41,936 nucleotides of DNA from Oscillospiraceae bacterium. Lineage in GTDB: Bacteria; Bacillota; Clostridia; Oscillospirales; Oscillospiraceae. Location of the stretch: assembly GCA_902775355.1 (NCBI GenBank), contig CACYLY010000027.1, positions 1-41,936 of the forward strand, given 5' to 3'. Positions 21,689 through 30,575 of this stretch are shown in pieces (positions within the stretch are counted from its first letter, which is position 1; each line of letters opens with the position of its first letter). Both the position numbers and the translations under genes were made by a program. Below the pieces are notes generated by a model, which saw only the letters and a program-made list of their open reading frames with translations, did no database searches and was not told the origin of the DNA.

Positions 21689-22180
21689 CTACTTCCGCTC
21701 TCCGATGTCGGTACGCTTGACCAGCAGGGCCGAGACCACGCCGATGACCACGCCGGCCACGGTGCCGCTGAGGATCAGCACCGGCAGATAGTAGACCACG
21801 TTTCGCCCCATCAGGACCCAGGCCATCAGGATCTGGCCCAGATTGTGCAGCACGCCGCCGGAGACGCTGACGAAGACGCAGCTGAGCTTGTCGATGCGCC
21901 GCAGCAGGATCATGCCCAGCAGACTCAGCACCGCGCCGGCGGCGCTGTACATGAGGCTGGCAACGTGGCCGAAAAGCAGGCTCACCAGCAGCACCCGCAG
22001 CAGGGAGACCCCCACAGCCTCCTTCCAGCCCAGCCGGTACAGGGCGAAGATCACCGCCAGGTTCGCCAGACCCAGCTTCACCCCCGGGATGCCCGGGGAG
22101 GGGACCAGGCTTTCCAGATAGGACAGGATCATGGCCAGCGCGATGCACATGGCCATGACCGTTACTTTTTTGGTTTTCAT
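21689..22180 (-). CDS. Gx transporter / heptaprenyl diphosphate synthase component I family
   Basis: A 163-residue membrane protein with about five hydrophobic segments and the family hallmark PSPGIPGVKLGLANLAV near residues 27-43. The family is named after a subunit of heptaprenyl diphosphate synthase, but the integral-membrane members are related to ECF-type S components and are common next to NusG-II and Rnf genes. Its substrate is unknown; a quinone- or isoprenoid-related role is often assumed. It is the last gene of the Rnf-like operon, nine nt after the NusG-II stop. Confidence 0.85.
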   Translation of the reverse strand: MKTKKVTVMAMCIALAMILSYLESLVPSPGIPGVKLGLANLAVIFALYRLGWKEAVGVSLLRVLLVSLLFGHVASLMYSAAGAVLSLLGMILLRRIDKLSCVFVSVSGGVLHNLGQILMAWVLMGRNVVYYLPVLILSGTVAGVVIGVVSALLVKRTDIGERK

Positions 22181-22189
22181 GCGATCACC

Positions 22190-22570
22190 TCAGCCGACCA
22201 CCAGGTCCACTCCGTCGGACTCCCCGCCCTCCACCGTGACGGTGAGGCGGTTGGGCAGACAGGTGATGACCTGGCCGGTATAGTGGATCTTCCCCTGCTT
22301 GACGCAGATGTGGTCCGGGCAGTTGGCCTCGGAGAGCCAGGCCTGCCCGTCCCGAATGACCAGGATGTTGCTGCCGCCGTTCAGGGGGAAGGTGCCGTTC
22401 AGCGAGAGGGAGTGGCGCTCCACCTCCACGCCGTCCACCCGGACCACGGCCACGCCCCCCTCCTGACGCCCGTGGTTGAGCGCCAGGAAGAGGATGCCGG
22501 CCAGGGCCAGCAGGGCGGCGATCAGGATCAGATCGGCCCGCAGCTTTTTGTTTGCGAAAAGGGCTTTCAC
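22190..22570 (-). CDS. NusG domain II-containing protein
   Basis: A 126-residue protein with an N-terminal membrane anchor (about 13-31) and an extracytosolic NusG_II domain. The signature CPDHICVKQGKIHYTGQVI, then TCLPNRLTV holds the three conserved cysteines. This stand-alone domain is unrelated to transcription NusG in function and frequently accompanies Rnf and ApbE genes; its job is not established. Translation starts at a GTG overlapping the rnfA stop (GTGA), so the two genes are coupled. Confidence 0.9.
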   Translation of the reverse strand: MKALFANKKLRADLILIAALLALAGILFLALNHGRQEGGVAVVRVDGVEVERHSLSLNGTFPLNGGSNILVIRDGQAWLSEANCPDHICVKQGKIHYTGQVITCLPNRLTVTVEGGESDGVDLVVG

Positions 22571-23100
22571 TTGAACTGGAAGGCGGTCAGCGCCAGGGCC
22601 GCGATGGCGGCGGCCAGGAGCTGGATGGGGAAGCCCCGGAAGGCCTTGGGCACCTGGTCCTCCTCGATCCTCTCCTGAATGCCGGAGAGCAGGAACATGC
22701 CGAGGAGGAAGCCCAGACCCGCGCCCAGTGCGCTGAGAAGCACCGTTCCCAGGCTCTCGGCCGAGAGCATGTTCAGGCCCAGGCCCAGCACCGCGCTGTT
22801 GAGGGCGATGATGGGGAAGAAGACGCCCAGCTTCTTGCCGCAGAGCAGCTGCAGCAGATACACCAGGATCAGGACCACCGCCAGAGCGGCCAGGATCTGC
22901 CAGTAGCCGGGGATGAGATCCCGCAGGAGCCAGAGGATCCCGGCGGAGAGCACCGTCACCGCGGTGACGGCCAGGCCCAGGACCAGGGTCTTCTCCCCCT
23001 TGCGGGCGAAGCCCAGCATGGGCGTCAGGCCCAGACCGGCGCTGAGGGCGTAGTTGTTCACCAGGACGAAGCCCAGAACGAGAAGAATCAGCTCTTTCAT
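22567..23100 (-). CDS. rnfA: RnfA-like membrane subunit lacking cluster cysteines
   Basis: A 177-residue, six-span membrane protein. Homology to RnfA/NqrE is clear from VLVNNYALSAGLGL near 12-25, NSAVLGLGL near 101 and VPKAFRGFPI near the end. Canonical RnfA has LGxCP and TNCAVLG, whose cysteines bind half of an intramembrane [2Fe-2S] cluster. Here they are Thr26 (LGLTP) and Ser102 (LNSAV), so the cluster ligands are absent. The start codon overlaps the rnfE stop (ATGA). The protein is a little shorter than the usual 190 residues. Confidence 0.9.
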   Translation of the reverse strand: MKELILLVLGFVLVNNYALSAGLGLTPMLGFARKGEKTLVLGLAVTAVTVLSAGILWLLRDLIPGYWQILAALAVVLILVYLLQLLCGKKLGVFFPIIALNSAVLGLGLNMLSAESLGTVLLSALGAGLGFLLGMFLLSGIQERIEEDQVPKAFRGFPIQLLAAAIAALALTAFQFK

Positions 23101-23735
23101 GCTTCAGCCTCCTTTTCCTCCACCGGGAAGTCCACGGCTGCGGCGGTGTTCCTGCCCGTCTCCTCCCGGGCGGGGAAGAGCCCGTTGTAGACCGCCAGCA
23201 GCAGGCTGAAAACGATCAGGCCGCCGGGGGTCTGGGTGAGCAGGGCGTTTTTATAGGGCTCCAGGAAGGCTACCGGCGCGCCGGCAAAGCTGGCGGAGCC
23301 GAAGAGCTCCCGGATGGCGGCCAGCACCAGGGTGAACACGGCAAAGGCGAAGCCGTTCTCCAGGGCGCTGAGCAGGCCCTTGCCCAGGCCGAAGTCCGCC
23401 GCGTCCTCGGCGGAGCCGAAGAGCATCAGGTCCACGGCCAGGACGGCCACGTAGAAGCCCAGCATGTTCAGCACATTGGGCAGGAAGGCCTGCATCAGCA
23501 GCTGGACCATGGAGGCGAAGCCCGCCACCACCAGCAGGGCGGCCGGGAGCAGGGCCTCCTTCGAGAGCAGCCTGCGCACAAGGCCCAGGACCAGGGCCGA
23601 GCACAGCAGCACGGCCATCACCGCCAGGCTCATGCCCAGGGCGGCGCGGACGTCGGTGCTGGCGGCCAGGGCCGGAGCAAGGCCCAGGAACATCAGAACC
23701 GTCGGGTTGCGAAACAGCAGTTTCCGTTCTTTCAT
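23097..23735 (-). CDS. rnfE: RnfE-like membrane subunit lacking cluster cysteines
   Basis: A 212-residue, six-span membrane protein of the RnfE/NqrD family. Homology is seen in RNPTVLMFLGLAPALAAST (canonical NxxLVQLLGLCPLLAVT) and GFYVAVLAVDLMLFGSAE (canonical GIFIPLIVTNCIVVGRAE). The two cluster cysteines are replaced by Ala20 and, by alignment without gaps, Leu103. The C-terminal tail after 195 is hydrophilic. The ribosome site AGGAGG lies inside the last codons of rnfG, so the genes are tightly linked. Together with RnfA it should form the pseudo-symmetric membrane core. Confidence 0.9.
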   Translation of the reverse strand: MKERKLLFRNPTVLMFLGLAPALAASTDVRAALGMSLAVMAVLLCSALVLGLVRRLLSKEALLPAALLVVAGFASMVQLLMQAFLPNVLNMLGFYVAVLAVDLMLFGSAEDAADFGLGKGLLSALENGFAFAVFTLVLAAIRELFGSASFAGAPVAFLEPYKNALLTQTPGGLIVFSLLLAVYNGLFPAREETGRNTAAAVDFPVEEKEAEA

Positions 23736-23739
23736 GTGC

Positions 23740-25038
23740 TCACCTCCTGTTTCCCGTGAGAAGCGCGAAGGCTTCGAACACGTCGTGCGTGGCGGTCTTC
23801 ATGGCGCCGGAGCTGATGGTAGCGCCGGCGATGAGGGTCGCATCGTCGTTGAAGGTCTCGGCGGTGCTGCCCAGGAAGCCCTCCCGGTAATCGGAGATCG
23901 AGAAGTCCGGGGCATCGTAGAAGTCGCCCAGGTAGATGGACTTGACCCGCAGGCCGCTGATGGCGCCCTGGGCGTCCAGTGCGAAGTAGACCTCCATCAC
24001 GCCGCCGCTCTCCTCTTCATAGAAGCCGTAGGGCCGGGCGATAAAGGCGTAATAGCTGCCCTCCGCCGTCTCCGCCTTCCAGGCGGCGACCACGGTGTTG
24101 CTCAGGCCCGGGATCTCCACGGGCACAGGCTCCGCGTCGTCGGGCAGGACCTTCCGGATCCCCTTGGGCGGGGTGGGATCGATCTCCTCCAGGTTGGCGG
24201 CGCTCAGGCTCCGGAGCTCCTCGGCCAGCGCGGGATCGGCGGTCTCGGTCACGTCCTCGCCGGCGGGGCTCAGGATCTTCAGGCCGCCCACCAGGGTGTA
24301 CACCGCCAGAAGCTGCTTCCCGTCCTGCTCGGCGAACCAGAGGCAGCCGCTGCCGTTTCCGGCCCGGTAGCCGCCGGTGACGCTGCCGCTGCCCGCAAGC
24401 TCCTCGCCCTGGATGGCCCCGGCGGCGTTGACGATGCCGGGATAGGCCACGGGGATCAGCTCCTGGATCAGCTGCTCGTCGCTCTTCTGCGCGGCGGCAA
24501 AGAGGCCGTTCGCGACCAGGGTCTCAAAGCCGTCGTTGACGGCGTTCTTGATGGCGGAGGAGGAGAAGGTGACGCCGGCCACCAGCTCCACGCCGGCCAG
24601 GGTGGAGTCCTGCCCCTCGAAGCTGGGCAGGAATTCCGGGCTCAGCTCCCGGGTCTCGCCGGAGCCGTCCACCGTCAGGGACACGATCCTGCCCTCGAAA
24701 TCCACCACCAGGGTCAGCTCGATGGGCACATCCTTGGTGTAGCCCTGGGTGGTGCTCAGGCTCAGGATATAGACCTGCTTTTCCTCGTCCCGGTAGACCT
24801 TCTGCACGGTCTCAGCGGTGACGGTCAGCTGGGCGTTTTCGGGATCGGCCCGGTCAAAGAGCATCACAGAGTCGCCCAGCTTTTCCTTCTCGGCGGCCAG
24901 TCTGGCCTCCTCGGCCCGGCGCTCGTTCTCCGCCACGATGGGGGCGGTAAAGGCGTTGACGCCCAGGACGCAGCCGGCCATCACGGCCAGCAGCAGCGCC
25001 AGGCACAGGAGGCTTTTCAGCAGATTGTTGTTCTTCAT
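23740..25038 (-). CDS. rnfG: RnfG-like protein with two FMN-binding domains
   Basis: Extracytosolic flavoprotein anchored by one N-terminal membrane helix (about 8-29). At 432 residues it is about twice the usual RnfG length and contains two FMN-binding domains. Domain 1, about 85-180, ends in VAGVTFSSSAI (Thr157). Domain 2, about 325-430, ends in IAGATISSGAM (Thr407). Both match the SGAT-type site to which ApbE attaches FMN through a phosphoester to threonine. About 130 residues between the domains are unassigned. The chosen ATG at 25038 lies eight nt after GGAGG; a GTG three codons earlier overlaps rnfD. It should take electrons across the outer face of the membrane complex. Confidence 0.9.
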   Translation of the reverse strand: MKNNNLLKSLLCLALLLAVMAGCVLGVNAFTAPIVAENERRAEEARLAAEKEKLGDSVMLFDRADPENAQLTVTAETVQKVYRDEEKQVYILSLSTTQGYTKDVPIELTLVVDFEGRIVSLTVDGSGETRELSPEFLPSFEGQDSTLAGVELVAGVTFSSSAIKNAVNDGFETLVANGLFAAAQKSDEQLIQELIPVAYPGIVNAAGAIQGEELAGSGSVTGGYRAGNGSGCLWFAEQDGKQLLAVYTLVGGLKILSPAGEDVTETADPALAEELRSLSAANLEEIDPTPPKGIRKVLPDDAEPVPVEIPGLSNTVVAAWKAETAEGSYYAFIARPYGFYEEESGGVMEVYFALDAQGAISGLRVKSIYLGDFYDAPDFSISDYREGFLGSTAETFNDDATLIAGATISSGAMKTATHDVFEAFALLTGNRR

Positions 25039-25039
25039 A

Positions 25040-25954
25040 TCAGACACCTCCCAGCGGCTTTCTCCGCGTCCACTTCTCCAGCCAGGGAGCCAGGATATTC
25101 ATGCACAGGATGGAGTAGGACACGCCCTCGGGCAGGGCGCAGAACCAGCGGATCACAAAGGTGATGAGGCCGCAGCCCAGGGCGAACCACATCCGCGCCC
25201 GCAGGGTGATGGGGGTGGTGGTGTAGTCCGTGGCCATGAACACGGCGCCCAGCACCAAGCCGCCGGCCAGCAGCTCGTAGACGGCGGTGTTGAAGCCGCC
25301 GAAAATCAGGCTCAGGACGAAGACGGTGCCCATGAAGATCACGGGGACCTGCCAGGAAATGACCTTGCGGATCAGCAGATACGCAAAGCCGATCAGCAGG
25401 GCCAGGATGCAGGTCTCGCCGATGGCGCCGCCCCGCTGGCCCAGGAACATCTGCAGCAGGGTGGGCAGCTGGGCCCCCTCGGTGCCGATCAGGTCCAGGG
25501 GCGTGGCGCCGGTGGTCCCGTCGGGCAGGGTGCCGCCGGCCACGGTGGAGGTGAAGGCCATCAGCAGGAACACGCGGGCGGTGATGGCGGGGTTGGCAAA
25601 GTTCCGGCCGATGCCGCCGAAGAGGCACTTGACCAGCACGATAGCGAAGACGCTGCCCAGGGCGCCCTGCCACAGGGGCACGTTGGCGCTCAGGTTCAGG
25701 GCCAGCAGCAGGCCCGTGACCACGGCGCTCAGGTCGCCCACGGTCTGCTTCTTTTTGCAGATCAGGTTAAACAGGAACTCGGAGAGCACCGCGGCGATCA
25801 CGCAGGTGAGGATCAGCCACAGGGCCTTGACGCCGAAGATCACGACGCCGGCCACGGCGGCGGGAAGCAGGGCCAGGATCACGTCCAGCATGATGCGCCG
25901 GTCGCTGGCGCCGCTGTGGATATGAGGTCCGGAGGACATGATGGGTTTTTCCAC
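25040..25954 (-). CDS. rnfD: RnfD-like membrane subunit
   Basis: A 304-residue multi-span subunit related to RnfD/NqrB. The covalent FMN attachment motif is present as DGTTGATPLD (Thr151), matching the canonical SGATPL. Other family traits are the N-terminal SSGPHIHSG and FGGIGRNFANPAI. It starts at GTG, with AGGAGG ten nt upstream, three nt after the rnfC stop. With its flavin site intact it should be a substrate of ApbE. NqrB/RnfD also houses the ion pathway in canonical complexes; I cannot tell whether ions are pumped here. Confidence 0.93.
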   Translation of the reverse strand: MEKPIMSSGPHIHSGASDRRIMLDVILALLPAAVAGVVIFGVKALWLILTCVIAAVLSEFLFNLICKKKQTVGDLSAVVTGLLLALNLSANVPLWQGALGSVFAIVLVKCLFGGIGRNFANPAITARVFLLMAFTSTVAGGTLPDGTTGATPLDLIGTEGAQLPTLLQMFLGQRGGAIGETCILALLIGFAYLLIRKVISWQVPVIFMGTVFVLSLIFGGFNTAVYELLAGGLVLGAVFMATDYTTTPITLRARMWFALGCGLITFVIRWFCALPEGVSYSILCMNILAPWLEKWTRRKPLGGV

Positions 25955-25957
25955 GGC

Positions 25958-27301
25958 TCACTTTCCTCCTTCCTTATGGGCTTTTTCCCAGTTGCGGATA
26001 AAGCCGATGGCTTTGTTGTTGGTCTCCGCCAGAGGGCGGTGGGCCGGGCAGACATAGCTGCAGCAGCCGCACTCCATGCAGACTCTGACCTGCTCCTTCT
26101 GGAGGATGGCGGCCTTTTTGTCCTCATCCTCCAGCTCCATGGCCCGGGAGAAGGCGGCGGGGTTCAGGCCCAGGGGGCAGACCGCCACACAGCGGCCGCA
26201 GTGGATGCAGGGGCTGGGGGCGGTTTTTTCCGTATCCTTCCGGTTCATGAGCACCACCGCGTTGGTGGCCTTGAGCAGGACATTGTCCAGGGAGTCCTGG
26301 GTCTTGCCCATCATGGCGCCGCCGAAGATGATCTTGGCCGGCTCCTCCTTCAGGCCGCCGCAGGCCTCCACCAGGTCCCGGACGGTCACGCCGATGGGGA
26401 CGATCAGGTTCTTGGGCTCCTTCACGGCGGAGCCCTCCACGGTGACGATGCGCTCCACCATGGGCATGCCGGTGACGAAGTACTCGGCCATCTTGACCAG
26501 GGAGTACACGTTGATGATGATGACGCCGAGGGACGCCATGCGCTGGCCCTTCTCCACCACCTTGCCGGTGGCGTTGTACAGCAGCACCTGCTTGGCGCCC
26601 TGGGGATAGACGCTGCTGAGGGGCAGCACCTTCACGGCCGGGTCGTCCTTGAAGCGCTCGGTCAGCTGCTCAATGGCGTCGGGCTTGTTCTTCTCGATGC
26701 CGATGATGAACTCCTCGCTGCCCAGGAACTGCTTCAAGAGCTCAATGCCCTTCTGGATCAGGTCGCCGTACTCCAGCATGACCCGGTGGTCGCAGGTGAT
26801 GAAGGGCTCGCACTCGGCGCCGTTGATGAGCACGGTCTGGATGTGGCTCTTCTGGGCCGCGGAGAGCTTGGCCCACACGGGGTAGGCCGCGCCGCCCAGA
26901 CCCACCGCGCCGCTGTCCCGCACGCACTGGAGGAACTCGTCCAGATTCGTGGGCTGGGGGATCTTCAGGTCCGGGCATTTTTCCATCTTGCCGTCGCTCT
27001 CGATGCGGATGGCAAGGGCCTTCTTCCCGGCCGCCGTATAGTTTTCGATGGCCTTGACCGTGCCGGAGACCGAGGCGTGGATGTGGGCGCTGCCGCGGTC
27101 CTTCTCCCTGGCGATCAGCTGGCCTACCGTCACATGGTCGCCCACCTGGACCACCGGCTCGGCGTTGGTGGCCGAGTGGGAGTTCATGGGGGAAACCGGC
27201 AGCAGCACTTCCTTGGGGATGGGGATGCGCACGGGGGCCATGCCCGCCGTGCTCTTATAATGGGGTAGTTTCAGGCTCGAGATGCTTTTTTTCAGGCTCA
27301 A
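25958..27301 (-). CDS. rnfC: RnfC-like iron-sulfur flavoprotein subunit
   Basis: Peripheral cytoplasmic subunit of 447 residues that normally exchanges electrons with NAD(H). The nucleotide/FMN region is conserved: AVGLGGAAYPVWAKLS and VLINGAECEPFITCDHRVML. An SLBB-type segment follows. Two [4Fe-4S] motifs are complete: CIHCGRCVAVCP from about residue 365 and CMECGCCSYVCP from about 408. The start is TTG, with AGGAGG eight nt before it; the N-terminal residues before the first ATG (MAPVRIP) belong to the family, which supports the TTG. It lies between apbE and rnfD. Confidence 0.94.
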   Translation of the reverse strand: MSLKKSISSLKLPHYKSTAGMAPVRIPIPKEVLLPVSPMNSHSATNAEPVVQVGDHVTVGQLIAREKDRGSAHIHASVSGTVKAIENYTAAGKKALAIRIESDGKMEKCPDLKIPQPTNLDEFLQCVRDSGAVGLGGAAYPVWAKLSAAQKSHIQTVLINGAECEPFITCDHRVMLEYGDLIQKGIELLKQFLGSEEFIIGIEKNKPDAIEQLTERFKDDPAVKVLPLSSVYPQGAKQVLLYNATGKVVEKGQRMASLGVIIINVYSLVKMAEYFVTGMPMVERIVTVEGSAVKEPKNLIVPIGVTVRDLVEACGGLKEEPAKIIFGGAMMGKTQDSLDNVLLKATNAVVLMNRKDTEKTAPSPCIHCGRCVAVCPLGLNPAAFSRAMELEDEDKKAAILQKEQVRVCMECGCCSYVCPAHRPLAETNNKAIGFIRNWEKAHKEGGK

Positions 27302-27314
27302 TTCTCCCGCCTCC

Positions 27315-28499
27315 TCAGTTTTCTGGTATTTCTTCGATCAAGTCGGCGAAGCCCGGGGTCCACTGCATCCTCCCGTCCGGGAAGATCCACAGCAGCTCCA
27401 CGCCGCCGATGCTTTCCGCAAGCGCCATGCCCTGCTCCGCCGACATACAGAAGAGGGCGGTGGACAGAGCGTCCGCCAGGGCGCTGTCCCGGGTGACCAC
27501 GGTGAGAGACGCGAAGTAGTCCGCCGGATACAGGGTGTCCCTGTCGATGATGTGGTGATAGCGCTGCCCCTTGACGGTGAAGTAGCGCTCGTAGACGCCG
27601 GAGGTGACGCAGGCCGTGTCCCGGATGCGGATCTTGCAGGCATAGCCCTGGCCGTCCTGCGCCGGGTCCCGGATGGCGGTCTTCCAGCCGCTGCGGTCCG
27701 GCCGGTCGCCGATGCAGCGGATGTTGCCGCCGATGTTCAGCACATAGCCCTCCGCGCCCACGGATTCCAGGTATTCCGCCGCCCGCTCCGTGGCGTAGCC
27801 CTTGCCCAGGGCTCCCACGTCGATGGAGGCCTCCGGATCCGCGATGCGCACGGTATTGTGCTCCTCGTCGATCTCCAGCAGCTCGATGCCGGTGTGGGCG
27901 TAAGCCTCCCGCAGGGCCGCCTCCTCGGGGATCGCGGCGTTTTTGGGGTCCTCCCCCGCCGCCTCCCGGCAGTCGTGCCAGAGGCGCAGCACCGCTCCCA
28001 GCATCACGTTCATTTCCCCGTCGGTGAGCGTGTACATCTCCCGGGCGCAGAGCAGGAAGTCGATGAGCTTCCGGTCCACCTCCAGGGGCGCGCCGCCGGC
28101 GTTTTTATTGACGGTGCACAGGTTCGTGATCCCGCTGTACTCGTGATAGATATCGAAGAGCTGGTGGTATTCCGACAGGATATGTGAAACTTCGGCAGAG
28201 CGGTCCTCGAACCGTTCTGCCGAATCTCCTGCGTAGTCGTATACATAGGAGACGGTGTCGAAATAGGTATAGTATACCATGCCCTTCGGCTCGATCGCCT
28301 GCGGCGCGGGGCTTTCCTGCCCGGCAGGCGCCGCGGAGGGCCTCCCGGGCTCGTCCCGGGAAGCCGGTTCCGCGGTTTGCGGCAGGTCGGATTTCTCCGC
28401 TCCGGTCTCCTCCGCCCCGGCGCCGCAGGCGCTCAGAAGCAGCAGGGAGAGCAGCAGCAGAGCAGCAAGGATCTGTCTGGATCGCCGCAAGATGTTCAT
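27315..28499 (-). CDS. apbE: FAD:protein FMN transferase (ApbE), lipoprotein
   Basis: Lipid-anchored enzyme of 394 residues that transfers FMN from FAD to threonine in SGAT-like motifs of extracytosolic proteins. It has a signal peptide with lipobox LLSAC (Cys25), a Pro/Ala-rich linker to about 70, then the ApbE domain: DVGALGKGYATE, VLNIGGNIRCIG, TSGVYERYF, HHIIDRDTLYPAD and the metal-binding TRDSALADALSTALF. The ATG directly abuts GGAG; a TTG three codons later has better spacing and could be the true start. It sits between the tandem FMN-binding-like protein and rnfC, so its likely targets are encoded on both sides. Confidence 0.95.
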   Translation of the reverse strand: MNILRRSRQILAALLLLSLLLLSACGAGAEETGAEKSDLPQTAEPASRDEPGRPSAAPAGQESPAPQAIEPKGMVYYTYFDTVSYVYDYAGDSAERFEDRSAEVSHILSEYHQLFDIYHEYSGITNLCTVNKNAGGAPLEVDRKLIDFLLCAREMYTLTDGEMNVMLGAVLRLWHDCREAAGEDPKNAAIPEEAALREAYAHTGIELLEIDEEHNTVRIADPEASIDVGALGKGYATERAAEYLESVGAEGYVLNIGGNIRCIGDRPDRSGWKTAIRDPAQDGQGYACKIRIRDTACVTSGVYERYFTVKGQRYHHIIDRDTLYPADYFASLTVVTRDSALADALSTALFCMSAEQGMALAESIGGVELLWIFPDGRMQWTPGFADLIEEIPEN

Positions 28500-28531: not shown

Positions 28532-30499
28532 TCAGGCAGCGGCCTTTTCCTCGGCGGCGGGCAGCGCGTTGCCGGCAGCCTTGGCGATGACGTTGATCAT
28601 GCCGTCGACGCTGATGGAGCAGGTGGCGTACAGCTCCTCATCCACAAAGACATTGTGGCCTTCTTCGTTGGTCTTGGTCTCGGTGGCAAGCAGCTCCTCG
28701 GCGGTCTGGCCCAGGCAGAACTCGACAAAGCTTCTGGCCTGCTGGTACCACTCGTAGGTGCAGCCGGAGAACTTGACCATGTTGTAGTCTTCCTTCAGCT
28801 CCCGCTTGGTGCCGCCGAACTTCACCTCGCCGATCTCGCCGTCCTCGTCGATGGCGATCTGGGGCTGGGTGGCGTCGGTCAGGGCGGCCAGGATGACGCC
28901 CTCGTCGTCCACGACCACGGCGGCGTACTCACTGTACATCTTCACCACGCCGTCCTCGTCCTCGGTAGCGGCCTTGGACTCGTCAGCCTTGGTGATGATG
29001 GCCAGACCCAGATGGATCTCGCCCTTGGGGTTGAAGCGCATGCCCTGCTCGTCTTTGCAGGCCTTCAGGACGGCTTCCTTGAAGTCGCCGATGGAAATGG
29101 TGCAGCCGGCGTACAGCTCTTCGTCCACAGCCACCAGGTGCTCGCCGTCCTCCTTGAGCTCGATGGCCTCGACCTCTTCCGCGGTCTTGCCGATCAGGTA
29201 CTGCTCAAAGTTGGCGGCCTGCTCGTACCACTCCATGGTGGCGTCGGAATACTTGACCATGTTGTAGTCGTCGCCCAGCTCGACCTTGGTGAGGAACTCC
29301 TTCTCGGTGTCGACCTGGCCGTCCGTCACGTCCATCTTGCTCTGGGCCACGTCGATCTTCACGGCGACGATCTTACCCTCGCCGTCCAGGACCACAGCAG
29401 CGGTGGTGGCGTCCACCTGCGCGTTGCCGGCCTTGGAGCTGTTGGTGTTCAGGCTCACGCCCAGGCCCAGCTTGTACTCGCCGCCCAGGGCGTTGTTCAC
29501 GGCCTTGACCGTGACGTTGATCATACCGTCGACGCTGATGGAGCAGGTAGCGTACAGCTCCTCGTCCACGAACACATTGTGGCCTTCTTCGTTGGTCTTG
29601 GTCTCGGTGGCGCGCAGCTCCTCAGCGGTCTTGCCCACGCAGAACTCGACGAAGCTTCTGGCCTGCTGGTACCACTCGTAGGTGCAGCCGGAGAACTTGA
29701 CCATGTTGTAGTCTTCCTTCAGCTCCCGCTTGGTGCCGCCGAATTTCACCTCGCCGATCTCGCCGTCCTCGTCGATGGCGATCTGGGGCTGGGTGGCGTC
29801 GGTCAGGGCGGCCAGGATCACGCCGTCCTTGTCCACGACCACGGCGGCGTACTCGCTGTACATCTTCACCACGCCGTCCTCGTCCTCGGTAGCGGCCTTG
29901 GACTCGTCAGCCTTGGTGATGATGGCCAGACCCAGCTGGAAATCGCCCGCGGCGGTGAAGTCCATGCCCTGCTCGTCTTTGCAGGCCTTCAGGACGGCTT
30001 CCTTGAAGTCGCCGATGGAGATGGTGCAGCCGGCGTACAGCTCTTCGTCCACAGCCACCAAGTGCTCGCCGTCCTCCTTGAGCTCGATGGCCTCGACCTC
30101 TTCCACAGTCTTGCCAATCAGGTACTGCTCAAAGTTGGCGGCCTGCTCGTACCACTCCATGGTGGCGTCAGAGAACTTGACCATGTTGTAGTCGTCGCCC
30201 AGCTCGACCTTGGTGAGGAAGGTCTTCTCGGTGTCGACCTGGCCGTCCGTCACGTCCATCTTGCTCTGGGCCACGTCGATCTTCACGGCGACGATCTTGC
30301 CCTCGGCATCCAGGACCACGGCGGCGGTGGTGGCGTCCACCTGCGCGTTGCCGGCCTTGGAGCTGTTGGTGTTCAGGCTCACGCCCAGACCCAGCCTGTA
30401 CTCGCCGGCAACTTCTTCCGGCTCTTCGGCCAGCGCCGTGGCCGCGAACAGCGAGGCCATCATGCACAGGCACAGCAGCATTGCAAGGATCTTTTTCAT
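28532..30499 (-). CDS. Secreted protein with four tandem FMN-binding-like domains
   Basis: A 655-residue acidic secreted protein. The signal peptide ends near ALA|EEPE (about residue 24). The mature part is two long repeats of 308 residues, each made of an A and a B domain of about 150 residues: A1 33-176, B1 177-338, A2 341-484, B2 485-646. Every domain has EWYEQA or EWYQQA and a late motif like that of FMN-binding domains. A domains read YAGCTISIGDFKEAVLKA (Thr159, Thr467) and B domains YATCSISVDG (Ser320, Ser628). Canonical sites are SGAT-TS, so A domains could be flavinylated by the adjacent ApbE; B sites are more doubtful. Conserved cysteines recur in each domain. Start: second ATG, eight nt after AGGAG. 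It is first in the Rnf-like operon. Function is inferred. Confidence 0.8.
   Translation of the reverse strand: MKKILAMLLCLCMMASLFAATALAEEPEEVAGEYRLGLGVSLNTNSSKAGNAQVDATTAAVVLDAEGKIVAVKIDVAQSKMDVTDGQVDTEKTFLTKVELGDDYNMVKFSDATMEWYEQAANFEQYLIGKTVEEVEAIELKEDGEHLVAVDEELYAGCTISIGDFKEAVLKACKDEQGMDFTAAGDFQLGLAIITKADESKAATEDEDGVVKMYSEYAAVVVDKDGVILAALTDATQPQIAIDEDGEIGEVKFGGTKRELKEDYNMVKFSGCTYEWYQQARSFVEFCVGKTAEELRATETKTNEEGHNVFVDEELYATCSISVDGMINVTVKAVNNALGGEYKLGLGVSLNTNSSKAGNAQVDATTAAVVLDGEGKIVAVKIDVAQSKMDVTDGQVDTEKEFLTKVELGDDYNMVKYSDATMEWYEQAANFEQYLIGKTAEEVEAIELKEDGEHLVAVDEELYAGCTISIGDFKEAVLKACKDEQGMRFNPKGEIHLGLAIITKADESKAATEDEDGVVKMYSEYAAVVVDDEGVILAALTDATQPQIAIDEDGEIGEVKFGGTKRELKEDYNMVKFSGCTYEWYQQARSFVEFCLGQTAEELLATETKTNEEGHNVFVDEELYATCSISVDGMINVIAKAAGNALPAAEEKAAA
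28556..29479. repeat. 924-bp internal coding repeat, copy 2
   Basis: Encodes domains A2-B2. Direct tandem of 29480-30403 with a constant 924-bp offset and roughly twenty amino-acid changes in 308. This points to a fairly recent duplication. Confidence 0.85.
29480..30403. repeat. 924-bp internal coding repeat, copy 1
   Basis: Encodes domains A1-B1. Within each copy the A and B halves are themselves distant relatives, so the gene grew by an old and a newer duplication. Confidence 0.85.
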
Positions 30500-30575
30500 T
30501 TTCATTTCTCCTGTTTCATTTTTTTGCCCGCGTCAGGGCGCGGCAAAGCCTGCCCCGACCCTGCGGCGTCATCTC

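What the first reader, a model, noticed from the sequence alone, without database searches (positions are those of the whole stretch)
22567..27301. Rnf-like complex without RnfB and without any of the RnfA/RnfE [2Fe-2S] cysteines
The gene order C-D-G-E-A matches clostridial rnf operons, but the next gene is NusG-II, not rnfB, and no RnfB-like ferredoxin gene is seen in the window. In canonical RnfA (LGxCP, TNCAV) and RnfE (LGLCP, TNCIV) four cysteines bind an intramembrane [2Fe-2S] cluster. Here they are Thr26, Ser102, Ala20 and Leu103. RnfC keeps both [4Fe-4S] motifs, and RnfD keeps its TGAT flavin site. Loss of the electron-entry subunit and of the transmembrane relay together looks like a coordinated change: a different electron route or a different function, not decay, since all frames are intact and tightly coupled.
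Basis: partly seen in the sequence, partly recalled or inferred. Interest (0 to 1): 0.88.

Follow-up and report, generated by a model that had tools for sequence, protein, structure and literature searches.

The report
Rnf complex lacking its ferredoxin half
Some gut bacteria carry a reduced version of the Rnf respiratory pump that has lost the parts handling ferredoxin electrons but kept the NADH and flavin parts, so it probably passes electrons from NADH to flavin proteins on the cell surface.

Summary
It is not a one-off: 44 further loci, nearly all titled Oscillospiraceae or Clostridia MAGs, share it, usually as surface protein-apbE-rnfCDGEA-eetA-eetB. RnfA cysteines and RnfE Cys2 are lost in all 44; RnfE Cys1 is kept in 12. 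rnfB is never adjacent, whereas 77 of 77 distinct cysteine-bearing rnfA loci examined have it. RnfC's NADH/FMN and [4Fe-4S] motifs, RnfD's flavin sites and two flavinylation threonines in an enlarged RnfG are conserved; dN/dS is low. The genome also has a distant canonical rnfCDGEAB, but 7 of 46 genomes with the variant show no RnfB. The RnfC tree makes the variant one clade beside complete, eetAB-linked operons. Best reading: the NADH half of Rnf kept as a one-way conduit, NADH -> RnfC -> RnfD -> RnfG -> surface flavin protein -> outside acceptor. Route, direction and loss of cluster-driven Na+ pumping are inferred. New variant of a known kind.

The parts
25958..27301 (-). RnfC, 447 aa: NADH/FMN module with two [4Fe-4S] motifs
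   Evidence: TIGR01945 398.9 bits, cut-off 245.95; Complex1_51K, RnfC_N, SLBB; aligned to 7zc6_C, 9eri_C, 8ahx_C; both cluster motifs in 43 of 43 rows, flavin/NADH motifs in 42 of 43, the other row cut
25040..25954 (-). RnfD, 304 aa: membrane flavin subunit; TGATPL threonine, and N121 and D243 at the A. woodii riboflavin positions N123/D249
   Evidence: TIGR01946 276.5 bits, cut-off 207.05
23740..25047 (-). RnfG-like, 435 aa: N-terminal helix, two FMN_bind domains
24568..24570 (-). RnfG T160 codon, first predicted flavinylation site (AGVT)
23818..23820 (-). RnfG T410 codon, second predicted flavinylation site (AGAT)
23097..23735 (-). RnfE, 212 aa, without the cluster cysteines
   Evidence: PF02508 97.3 bits; TIGR01948 104.1 bits, below cut-off 213.4
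23676..23678 (-). RnfE A20 codon, in place of cluster Cys (A. woodii C25)
23427..23429 (-). RnfE L103 codon, in place of cluster Cys (A. woodii C108)
22567..23100 (-). RnfA, 177 aa, without the cluster cysteines
   Evidence: PF02508 102.1 bits; TIGR01943 100.7 bits, below cut-off 229.3
23023..23025 (-). RnfA T26 codon, in place of cluster Cys (A. woodii C25)
22795..22797 (-). RnfA S102 codon, in place of cluster Cys (A. woodii C113)
22190..22570 (-). NusG domain II protein, 126 aa, taken as EetA
   Evidence: PF07009 2.7e-28; found in 43 of 44 related loci; the name EetA for this family is recalled
21689..22180 (-). EetB-family ECF S component, 163 aa (FAD export in Listeria)
   Evidence: PF07456 1.9e-40; PMC9973259 searches for EetB by PF07456; found in 38 of 44 related loci
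27315..28499 (-). ApbE flavin transferase, 394 aa, the only ApbE match in this genome assembly
   Evidence: PF02424 4.5e-66; one match genome-wide
28532..30505 (-). exported protein, 657 aa, four repeats of about 150-160 aa (two in relatives, mostly lipoproteins), probable multi-FMN carrier
   Evidence: Ser/Thr at the motif in both repeats in 40 of 40 rows; matches FMN_bind-type 2kzx, E 5.9e-5; no direct Pfam FMN_bind match

Best explanation
It is the NADH-side half of an Rnf complex, kept as a one-way electron exporter. NADH gives electrons to RnfC (FMN, two [4Fe-4S]); they cross the membrane through RnfD's riboflavin and covalent FMN, pass to two covalent FMNs on an enlarged RnfG, then to a multi-FMN surface protein, and leave to an extracellular acceptor. 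The ferredoxin half, RnfB plus the RnfA/RnfE [2Fe-2S] relay that links cytosolic ferredoxin with RnfG, is gone, so RnfA/RnfE remain as a cluster-free scaffold and cluster-driven Na+ pumping should be lost. ApbE and EetA/EetB in the operon attach the flavins and supply FAD outside. Shown by sequence: gene content, cysteine loss, retained RnfC/RnfD/RnfG cofactor motifs, conservation, purifying selection, ancestry. Inferred: electron direction, the surface protein as acceptor, loss of pumping, role of RnfA/RnfE.
For: RnfC and RnfD score above the Rnf subfamily cut-offs and keep cofactor motifs, while RnfB is absent and cluster cysteines are gone. RnfG T160 and T410 invariant in 43 of 43 rows. Operon context of export and flavinylation genes in 44 loci: E and A 44; D 43; G 44 with one D-G fused frame; EetA 43; C 42; ApbE 40; surface protein 39; EetB 38 (the gaps in C, D and ApbE and 4 of the 5 in the surface protein are loci cut at an end). 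7 of 46 genomes keep it with no RnfB found. The RnfA cluster shell is rebuilt uniformly: A. woodii T110 -> A in 45 of 45, T111 -> L/I in 45 of 45, against T in 21 of 21 canonical copies. dN/dS low. In A. woodii the cluster cysteines are needed for Fd-dependent NAD+ reduction, and Na+ transport is tied to cluster reduction (PMC11889175, passages read). A second, outward path was already proposed for multi-flavinylated RnfG (PMC8238504, section 18 read). In 9 of 44 loci an Nfn-type gene pair (name and role, NADH-ferredoxin-NADPH exchange, recalled) adjoins the operon, which fits an NADH-fed device.
Against: No experiment exists. RnfE E115 and V106 (A. woodii numbering) of the Na+ path stay invariant in 45 of 45 and R67 is K or R in 40 of 45, so some ion role may remain; Na+ passage through RnfD is also proposed in print (PMC12174285, passages). 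T111G had no phenotype in A. woodii (PMC11889175), so the T111 change may mean little. RnfE Cys1 persists in 12 of 45. The nearest relative, L037, lacks the surface-protein gene between the same neighbours, so that protein is not obligatory; EetB is not found in 6 of 44 loci that have room for it. The surface protein has no direct FMN_bind match in Pfam, Foldseek gave no clear fold match, and its best structural match, 2kzx, is tied with IscU. In 39 of 46 genomes an RnfB exists elsewhere.
Confidence: 0.66

Rival explanations
1. The complex borrows RnfB from the canonical rnf cluster and works as a second ferredoxin:NAD+ oxidoreductase by another membrane route.
For: The window's genome encodes RnfB at G000:C1; 39 of 46 genomes with the variant have an RnfB.
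Against: 7 of 46 genomes have no RnfB match at E 1e-20, including one 98% complete. The relay that takes RnfB's electrons is missing in RnfA in 45 of 45, and RnfE Cys2 too. In A. woodii removing these cysteines abolishes Fd-dependent NAD+ reduction (PMC11889175, passages).
Confidence: 0.08
2. Cluster-free RnfA/RnfE and RnfD still form an ion path, so NADH oxidation to outside acceptors is coupled to Na+ movement that balances the charge of exported electrons.
For: RnfE E115 and V106 equivalents invariant in 45 of 45; R67 position K in 30 and R in 10 of 45. RnfA and RnfE are present in all 44 loci. Na+ passage through RnfD/NqrB is proposed (PMC12174285, passages).
Against: RnfA T110, T111, Q85 and both cysteines are lost in 45 of 45 and E88 is kept in only 7. 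In A. woodii T110G stopped growth (T111G had no phenotype), and buried-site Na+ affinity depends on cluster reduction (PMC11889175, passages).
Confidence: 0.17
3. Electrons run inward: external reductants feed the surface flavins and the complex reduces NAD+.
For: Flavin chains can run either way (general knowledge).
Against: A multi-FMN protein was measured at -184 mV (PMC10339131, abstract passage); NAD+/NADH is about -320 mV (recalled). Inward flow is uphill and the cluster-gated coupling site is gone.
Confidence: 0.05
4. A decaying duplicate of the canonical operon.
For: Loss of a gene and of ligands; rnfD split into two frames in L075.
Against: All frames intact in the window; 44 other loci; dN/dS 0.03-0.33 in RnfA and RnfE; variant RnfC is not sister to the same genome's canonical copy.
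Confidence: 0.02

Closest known systems
Rnf complex, ferredoxin:NAD+ oxidoreductase (7zc6, 9eri, 8ahx)
   Same: RnfC, RnfD and the N-terminal part of RnfG with their cofactor motifs; RnfA/RnfE family; gene order C-D-G-E-A
   Different: No RnfB; no [2Fe-2S] ligand set in RnfA/RnfE; RnfG enlarged to two FMN domains; ApbE, EetA/EetB and a surface protein in the operon
Rnf operons with rnfB and all cysteines plus eetA-eetB in the same order of bacteria (L154-L160)
   Same: Among the nearest by RnfC tree; eetAB in 7 of 7, some with the surface protein or apbE. EetB beside Rnf genes in 572 Clostridia genomes is already published (PMC9973259, section 11)
   Different: They keep RnfB and all four cysteines in the copies examined
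Na+-NQR, held to be an rnf duplicate that lost rnfB (PMC4014512, passages read)
   Same: Descent from an rnf operon with loss of rnfB
   Different: NQR keeps the [2Fe-2S] and adds NqrF while RnfC's cofactors are lost (NqrA); here the opposite parts are kept
NQR/RNF-like one-way systems (PMC8238504, PMC11334425, passages read)
   Same: Proposed one-way flow from NAD(P)H to extracytosolic flavins
   Different: Those are two-subunit systems with an RnfD-PF00175 fusion; here RnfC is the NADH module and RnfA/RnfE remain
Listeria flavin-based extracellular electron transfer (PMC9973259, passages and section 11 read)
   Same: ApbE, EetA/EetB, lipoprotein flavin carrier
   Different: Listeria uses Ndh2 and demethylmenaquinone (Ndh2 recalled); here an Rnf half would do that step

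Membership tests
Rnf complex (ferredoxin:NAD+ oxidoreductase) | RnfB ferredoxin-accepting subunit in the operon | tested here: not met
   No PF04060 on the window's contig. Best RnfB-profile hits in the 44 related loci: none in 17; otherwise RnfC ferredoxin domains at 17-24 bits, except a 61-residue frame at 45.2 bits on the other strand (L042) and a ferredoxin 3.5 kb away at 34.3 bits without PF04060 (L068)
Rnf complex (ferredoxin:NAD+ oxidoreductase) | Four RnfA/RnfE cysteines binding the intramembrane [2Fe-2S] | tested here: not met
   0 of 4 in the window; RnfA 0 of 2 in 45 of 45; RnfE Cys2 lost in 45 of 45, Cys1 kept in 12 of 45
Rnf complex (ferredoxin:NAD+ oxidoreductase) | RnfC with NADH/FMN site and two [4Fe-4S] motifs | tested here: met
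Rnf complex (ferredoxin:NAD+ oxidoreductase) | RnfD covalent-FMN threonine and riboflavin residues | tested here: met
   T in 42 and S in 1 of 43 rows that cover the site; N 43 of 43 and D 44 of 44
Rnf complex (ferredoxin:NAD+ oxidoreductase) | RnfG FMN-binding domain | tested here: met
   but two domains, and TIGR01947 30.1 bits is below its cut-off of 102
Rnf complex (ferredoxin:NAD+ oxidoreductase) | Ferredoxin:NAD+ activity and Na+ or H+ pumping | not testable with these tools
   needs protein
Na+-NQR | NqrA-like (cofactor-free) subunit and NqrF in the operon | tested here: not met
   RnfC matches nqrA at 58.8 bits against a cut-off of 321.05 and keeps its clusters; no NqrF among the nine operon genes; the rest of the genome was not searched for NqrF
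NQR/RNF-like one-way system (PMC8238504) | NqrB/RnfD domain fused to PF00175 | tested here: not met
   RnfD matches PF03116 only
EetA/EetB-ApbE flavinylation module | PF07456 EetB next to ApbE and a flavinylated protein | tested here: met
   flavinylation itself is predicted from motifs; ECF-T and ATPase partners not searched
FMN-bind2 multi-flavin protein (28532-30505) | ~160-aa FMN-bind domains in even number with a flavinylated Ser/Thr | tested here: inconclusive
   Repeat size, even number and Ser/Thr fit; 2kzx link; no direct Pfam match and no clear Foldseek match

The most novel reading that the evidence does not exclude
A natural half-Rnf: in one lineage of gut Clostridia the ferredoxin side was deleted and the intramembrane cluster site rebuilt, leaving a dedicated NADH-to-cell-surface flavin exporter in which the former Na+ pump subunits RnfA/RnfE are a redox-inert scaffold or a charge-balancing ion path. 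It is the mirror image of NQR, which lost RnfB and RnfC's cofactors but kept the cluster.
Probability: 0.5. Interest if true: 0.85.

Novelty: new variant of a known kind. Interest (0 to 1): 0.72.

Why it matters
Rnf and NQR are taken to work by an electron loop that passes through the buried [2Fe-2S] cluster. A conserved complex with that loop cut in half would separate electron transfer from pumping by natural design, give a cluster-free RnfA/RnfE to test what that dimer does, and add an Rnf-derived NADH entry into flavin-based extracellular electron transfer in gut Clostridia, which I did not recognise in the listings and passages of my eight paper searches. It also gives a second outcome of rnfB loss besides the one proposed for the origin of NQR.

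Tried and rejected
Rejected: decay; shifted cysteines; recent duplication of the genome's canonical operon; a conserved replacement electron-entry gene beside the operon (19 representative loci, families shared by at least 4; besides shadow frames on the other strand the only shared extra genes were the Nfn-type pair, found near 9 of 44 loci).

Limits of the surveys: the class-wide search (391 genomes, 207 with matches) gave 30 loci, of which the window lacked the cysteines and 29 of 29 others had both. The order-wide search (394 genomes, 325 with matches) gave 30 loci, 5 of them variant, and the family search (120 genomes, 102 with matches) 30 loci, 5 of them variant. Lower-scoring matches were not inspected residue by residue, so further cysteine-less forms may exist. 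The genome-contig scan used two peptide patterns, one of which contains a changed Cys site, so it is biased towards the variant. The control loci were the best matches to variant RnfA and were not chosen by rnfB; two of their RnfB matches (L014, L110) are partial. Relatives of L080 were not surveyed.

Not found in print: searches returned no paper that I recognised from its listing or the passages read as describing an rnfB-less, cysteine-less Rnf; subscription papers are mostly not held.
Full report
What is there. On the - strand the window carries, in order, an exported repeat protein (28532-30505), ApbE (27315-28499), RnfC (25958-27301), RnfD (25040-25954), an RnfG-like protein of 435 aa (23740-25047), RnfE (23097-23735), RnfA (22567-23100), a NusG domain II protein (22190-22570) and a PF07456 protein (21689-22180). 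From ApbE to the last gene, gaps are at most 13 bases and three junctions overlap. RnfC and RnfD pass the Rnf subfamily cut-offs (398.9 against 245.95; 276.5 against 207.05 bits), whereas RnfE (104.1 against 213.4), RnfA (100.7 against 229.3) and RnfG (30.1 against 102) fall below theirs, marking a divergent set.

The cysteines. Against solved Rnf subunits the cluster cysteines align with RnfA T26 and S102 and RnfE A20 and L103, with no gap near them that could hide a shift. In A. woodii C25 and C113 of RnfA and C25 and C108 of RnfE hold the [2Fe-2S]; mutating the cluster cysteines removes two irons and Fd-dependent NAD+ reduction (PMC11889175, passages read).

The rest of the genome. G000 (87.5% complete) has one PF04060 protein and four PF02508 proteins: RnfB and a canonical RnfA/RnfE pair on contig C1, and the pair in the window. 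The C1 operon is a full rnfCDGEAB with all cysteines. The window's operon holds the only ApbE match of the assembly, so its flavinylation genes may serve both complexes.

Relatives. A scan of the genome-contig collection (84,980 species by its description) with five cysteine-less RnfA sequences gave 45 loci. 44 are the same system; one (L080) is a gammaproteobacterial Rsx-like operon. Of the 44, RnfE and RnfA are found in 44, RnfD in 43, RnfG in 43 plus one frame that fuses D and G (L046), EetA in 43, RnfC in 42, ApbE in 40, the surface protein in 39 and EetB in 38. The gaps in C, D and ApbE and four of the five in the surface protein are loci cut at an end (L041, L046, L052, L077). L037 lacks the surface protein although its neighbours are present. 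The six loci without EetB have room for it, and one of them (L059) also lacks EetA. In L075 rnfD is split into two frames. RnfA lost both cysteines in 44 of 44, RnfE lost Cys2 in 44 of 44, and RnfE Cys1 is retained in 12 (45 rows with the window). No RnfB lies beside any of the 44. Record titles name Oscillospiraceae, Ruminococcaceae, Clostridiales, Clostridia and the like (one only 'uncultured bacterium'), and many name ruminant gut sites.

Control. RnfA loci taken by similarity in the window's family, order and class: 79 rows with both cysteines (50 of 60 rows, 29 of 29), all with an RnfB match on the same strand (two of them partial); two rows repeat a place, so 77 of 77. The 10 cysteine-less rows are 8 distinct places, none with RnfB and all with EetA. 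Because the variant forms one clade this is one event, not many; L080 shows that the two losses can part.

Do they use an RnfB from elsewhere? Of 52 genome handles searched with the canonical RnfB, 42 matched at 1e-20. Six handles repeat another genome (judged from contig lengths and coordinates), so 46 distinct genomes: 39 with RnfB, 7 without. One of the seven is G402, 98% complete and 3% contaminated; two more are given as 90% and 79% complete, and for the other four no completeness is told. MAG gaps could explain some of the seven.

Ancestry. In an RnfC tree of 63 rows (quick IQ-TREE, SH-aLRT only, rooted on the long branch of L080) the 42 variant rows are one clade (100). Its neighbours are complete operons with RnfB and all cysteines (L160, L144, L150; joint support 99), then six further complete operons with eetA-eetB; the window genome's own canonical copy lies in another group. 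The RnfA tree also keeps the 46 variant rows together (support 89 between the two groups, 62 when L080 is counted). So the variant most simply arose once from a complete, probably eetAB-linked Rnf. The 21 canonical operons read were picked by me from RnfB or RnfA matches; all 21 had CC in RnfA, CC in RnfE and RnfB.

The surface protein. Repeats of about 150-160 residues, two in relatives and four in the window, with a lipobox-like motif in 36 of 40 rows and a Ser/Thr in 40 of 40 at the motif in both repeats. The model of one repeat pair is confident (pLDDT 92.4, pTM 0.90). Its only match below E 0.1 among solved-structure sequences is 2kzx (E 5.9e-5), whose matched stretch is an FMN_bind domain (25.8 bits, cut-off 22) and whose SGAT lies in the aligned motif region. 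This fits the FMN-bind2 class described as about 160 aa in even numbers (PMC10979944, passages), but Pfam and Foldseek did not confirm it.

Mechanism. Removing RnfB and the [2Fe-2S] leaves the NADH -> RnfC -> RnfD -> RnfG arm. Electrons reaching RnfG have no relay in RnfA/RnfE to the cytosol, so they should go on to outside flavins; the operon supplies a likely carrier, the flavin transferase and the FAD-export subunit (EetB: PMC9973259, passages and section 11). An outward second path was proposed for multi-flavinylated RnfG in complete Rnf (PMC8238504, section 18). In 9 of 44 loci an Nfn-type pair (PRK06222 and gltA families; name Nfn recalled) adjoins the operon, and all 12 genomes sampled have a match to its first member; it could feed NADH from other pools. 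Direction, acceptor and loss of pumping are inference.

Comparison. NQR is held to descend from an rnf duplicate that lost rnfB (PMC4014512 and PMC12174285, passages read); the first argues that RnfC then lost its cofactors. Here RnfC kept them and the cluster went instead. EetB beside Rnf genes in Clostridia is already in print (572 genomes, PMC9973259 section 11). I did not find this variant in print in eight searches.

Noticed in passing
L080:9836-14703 (Gammaproteobacteria bacterium LSUCC0112): Rsx-like operon with RnfA and RnfE lacking the cluster cysteines but with an RnfB (PF04060, Fer4) and with no RnfG between RnfD and RnfE; FMN_bind proteins exist elsewhere in the genome. A separate loss of the cluster with a different set of parts kept.
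   Followed up: partly
L046:701-2866: RnfD and RnfG of the variant lie in one open frame of 722 codons: a gene fusion or a sequence error.
   Followed up: partly
L075:7128-8143: rnfD of the variant is split into two overlapping frames: a frameshift or a sequence error.
   Followed up: no
L077:2401-4341: RnfG-like frame of 647 codons, longer than in the other complete rows (411-452), with flavinylation-like motifs near both ends.
   Followed up: no
L067:11396-13706, L068:1004-3410, L074:813-3099 and six more loci: An Nfn-type pair (PRK06222 and gltA families) sits directly up- or downstream of the variant operon in 9 of 44 loci.
   Followed up: partly
window:30793-33573: 926-aa surface protein with Listeria-Bacteroides repeats, a carbohydrate-binding domain and a C-terminal NPDTGD-type tail, divergent from the operon; a similar protein stands in the same place in L037.
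   Followed up: no
window:28532-30505: The repeat protein is doubled here (four repeats against two in relatives) and lacks the lipobox that most relatives have; the closest relative L037 lacks the gene.
   Followed up: partly
G000:C34:39558-39776 and G000:C74:128-346 (L167, L168): Two further FMN_bind proteins, each with one SGAT/TGAT-type motif and a hydrophobic segment near the N-terminus, on contigs without an rnf match; possible partners of the only ApbE.
   Followed up: no
L065:19810-20550: A canonical-type rnfC begins about 9 kb downstream of the variant rnfA in this genome, so the two Rnf sets can lie close together.
   Followed up: no
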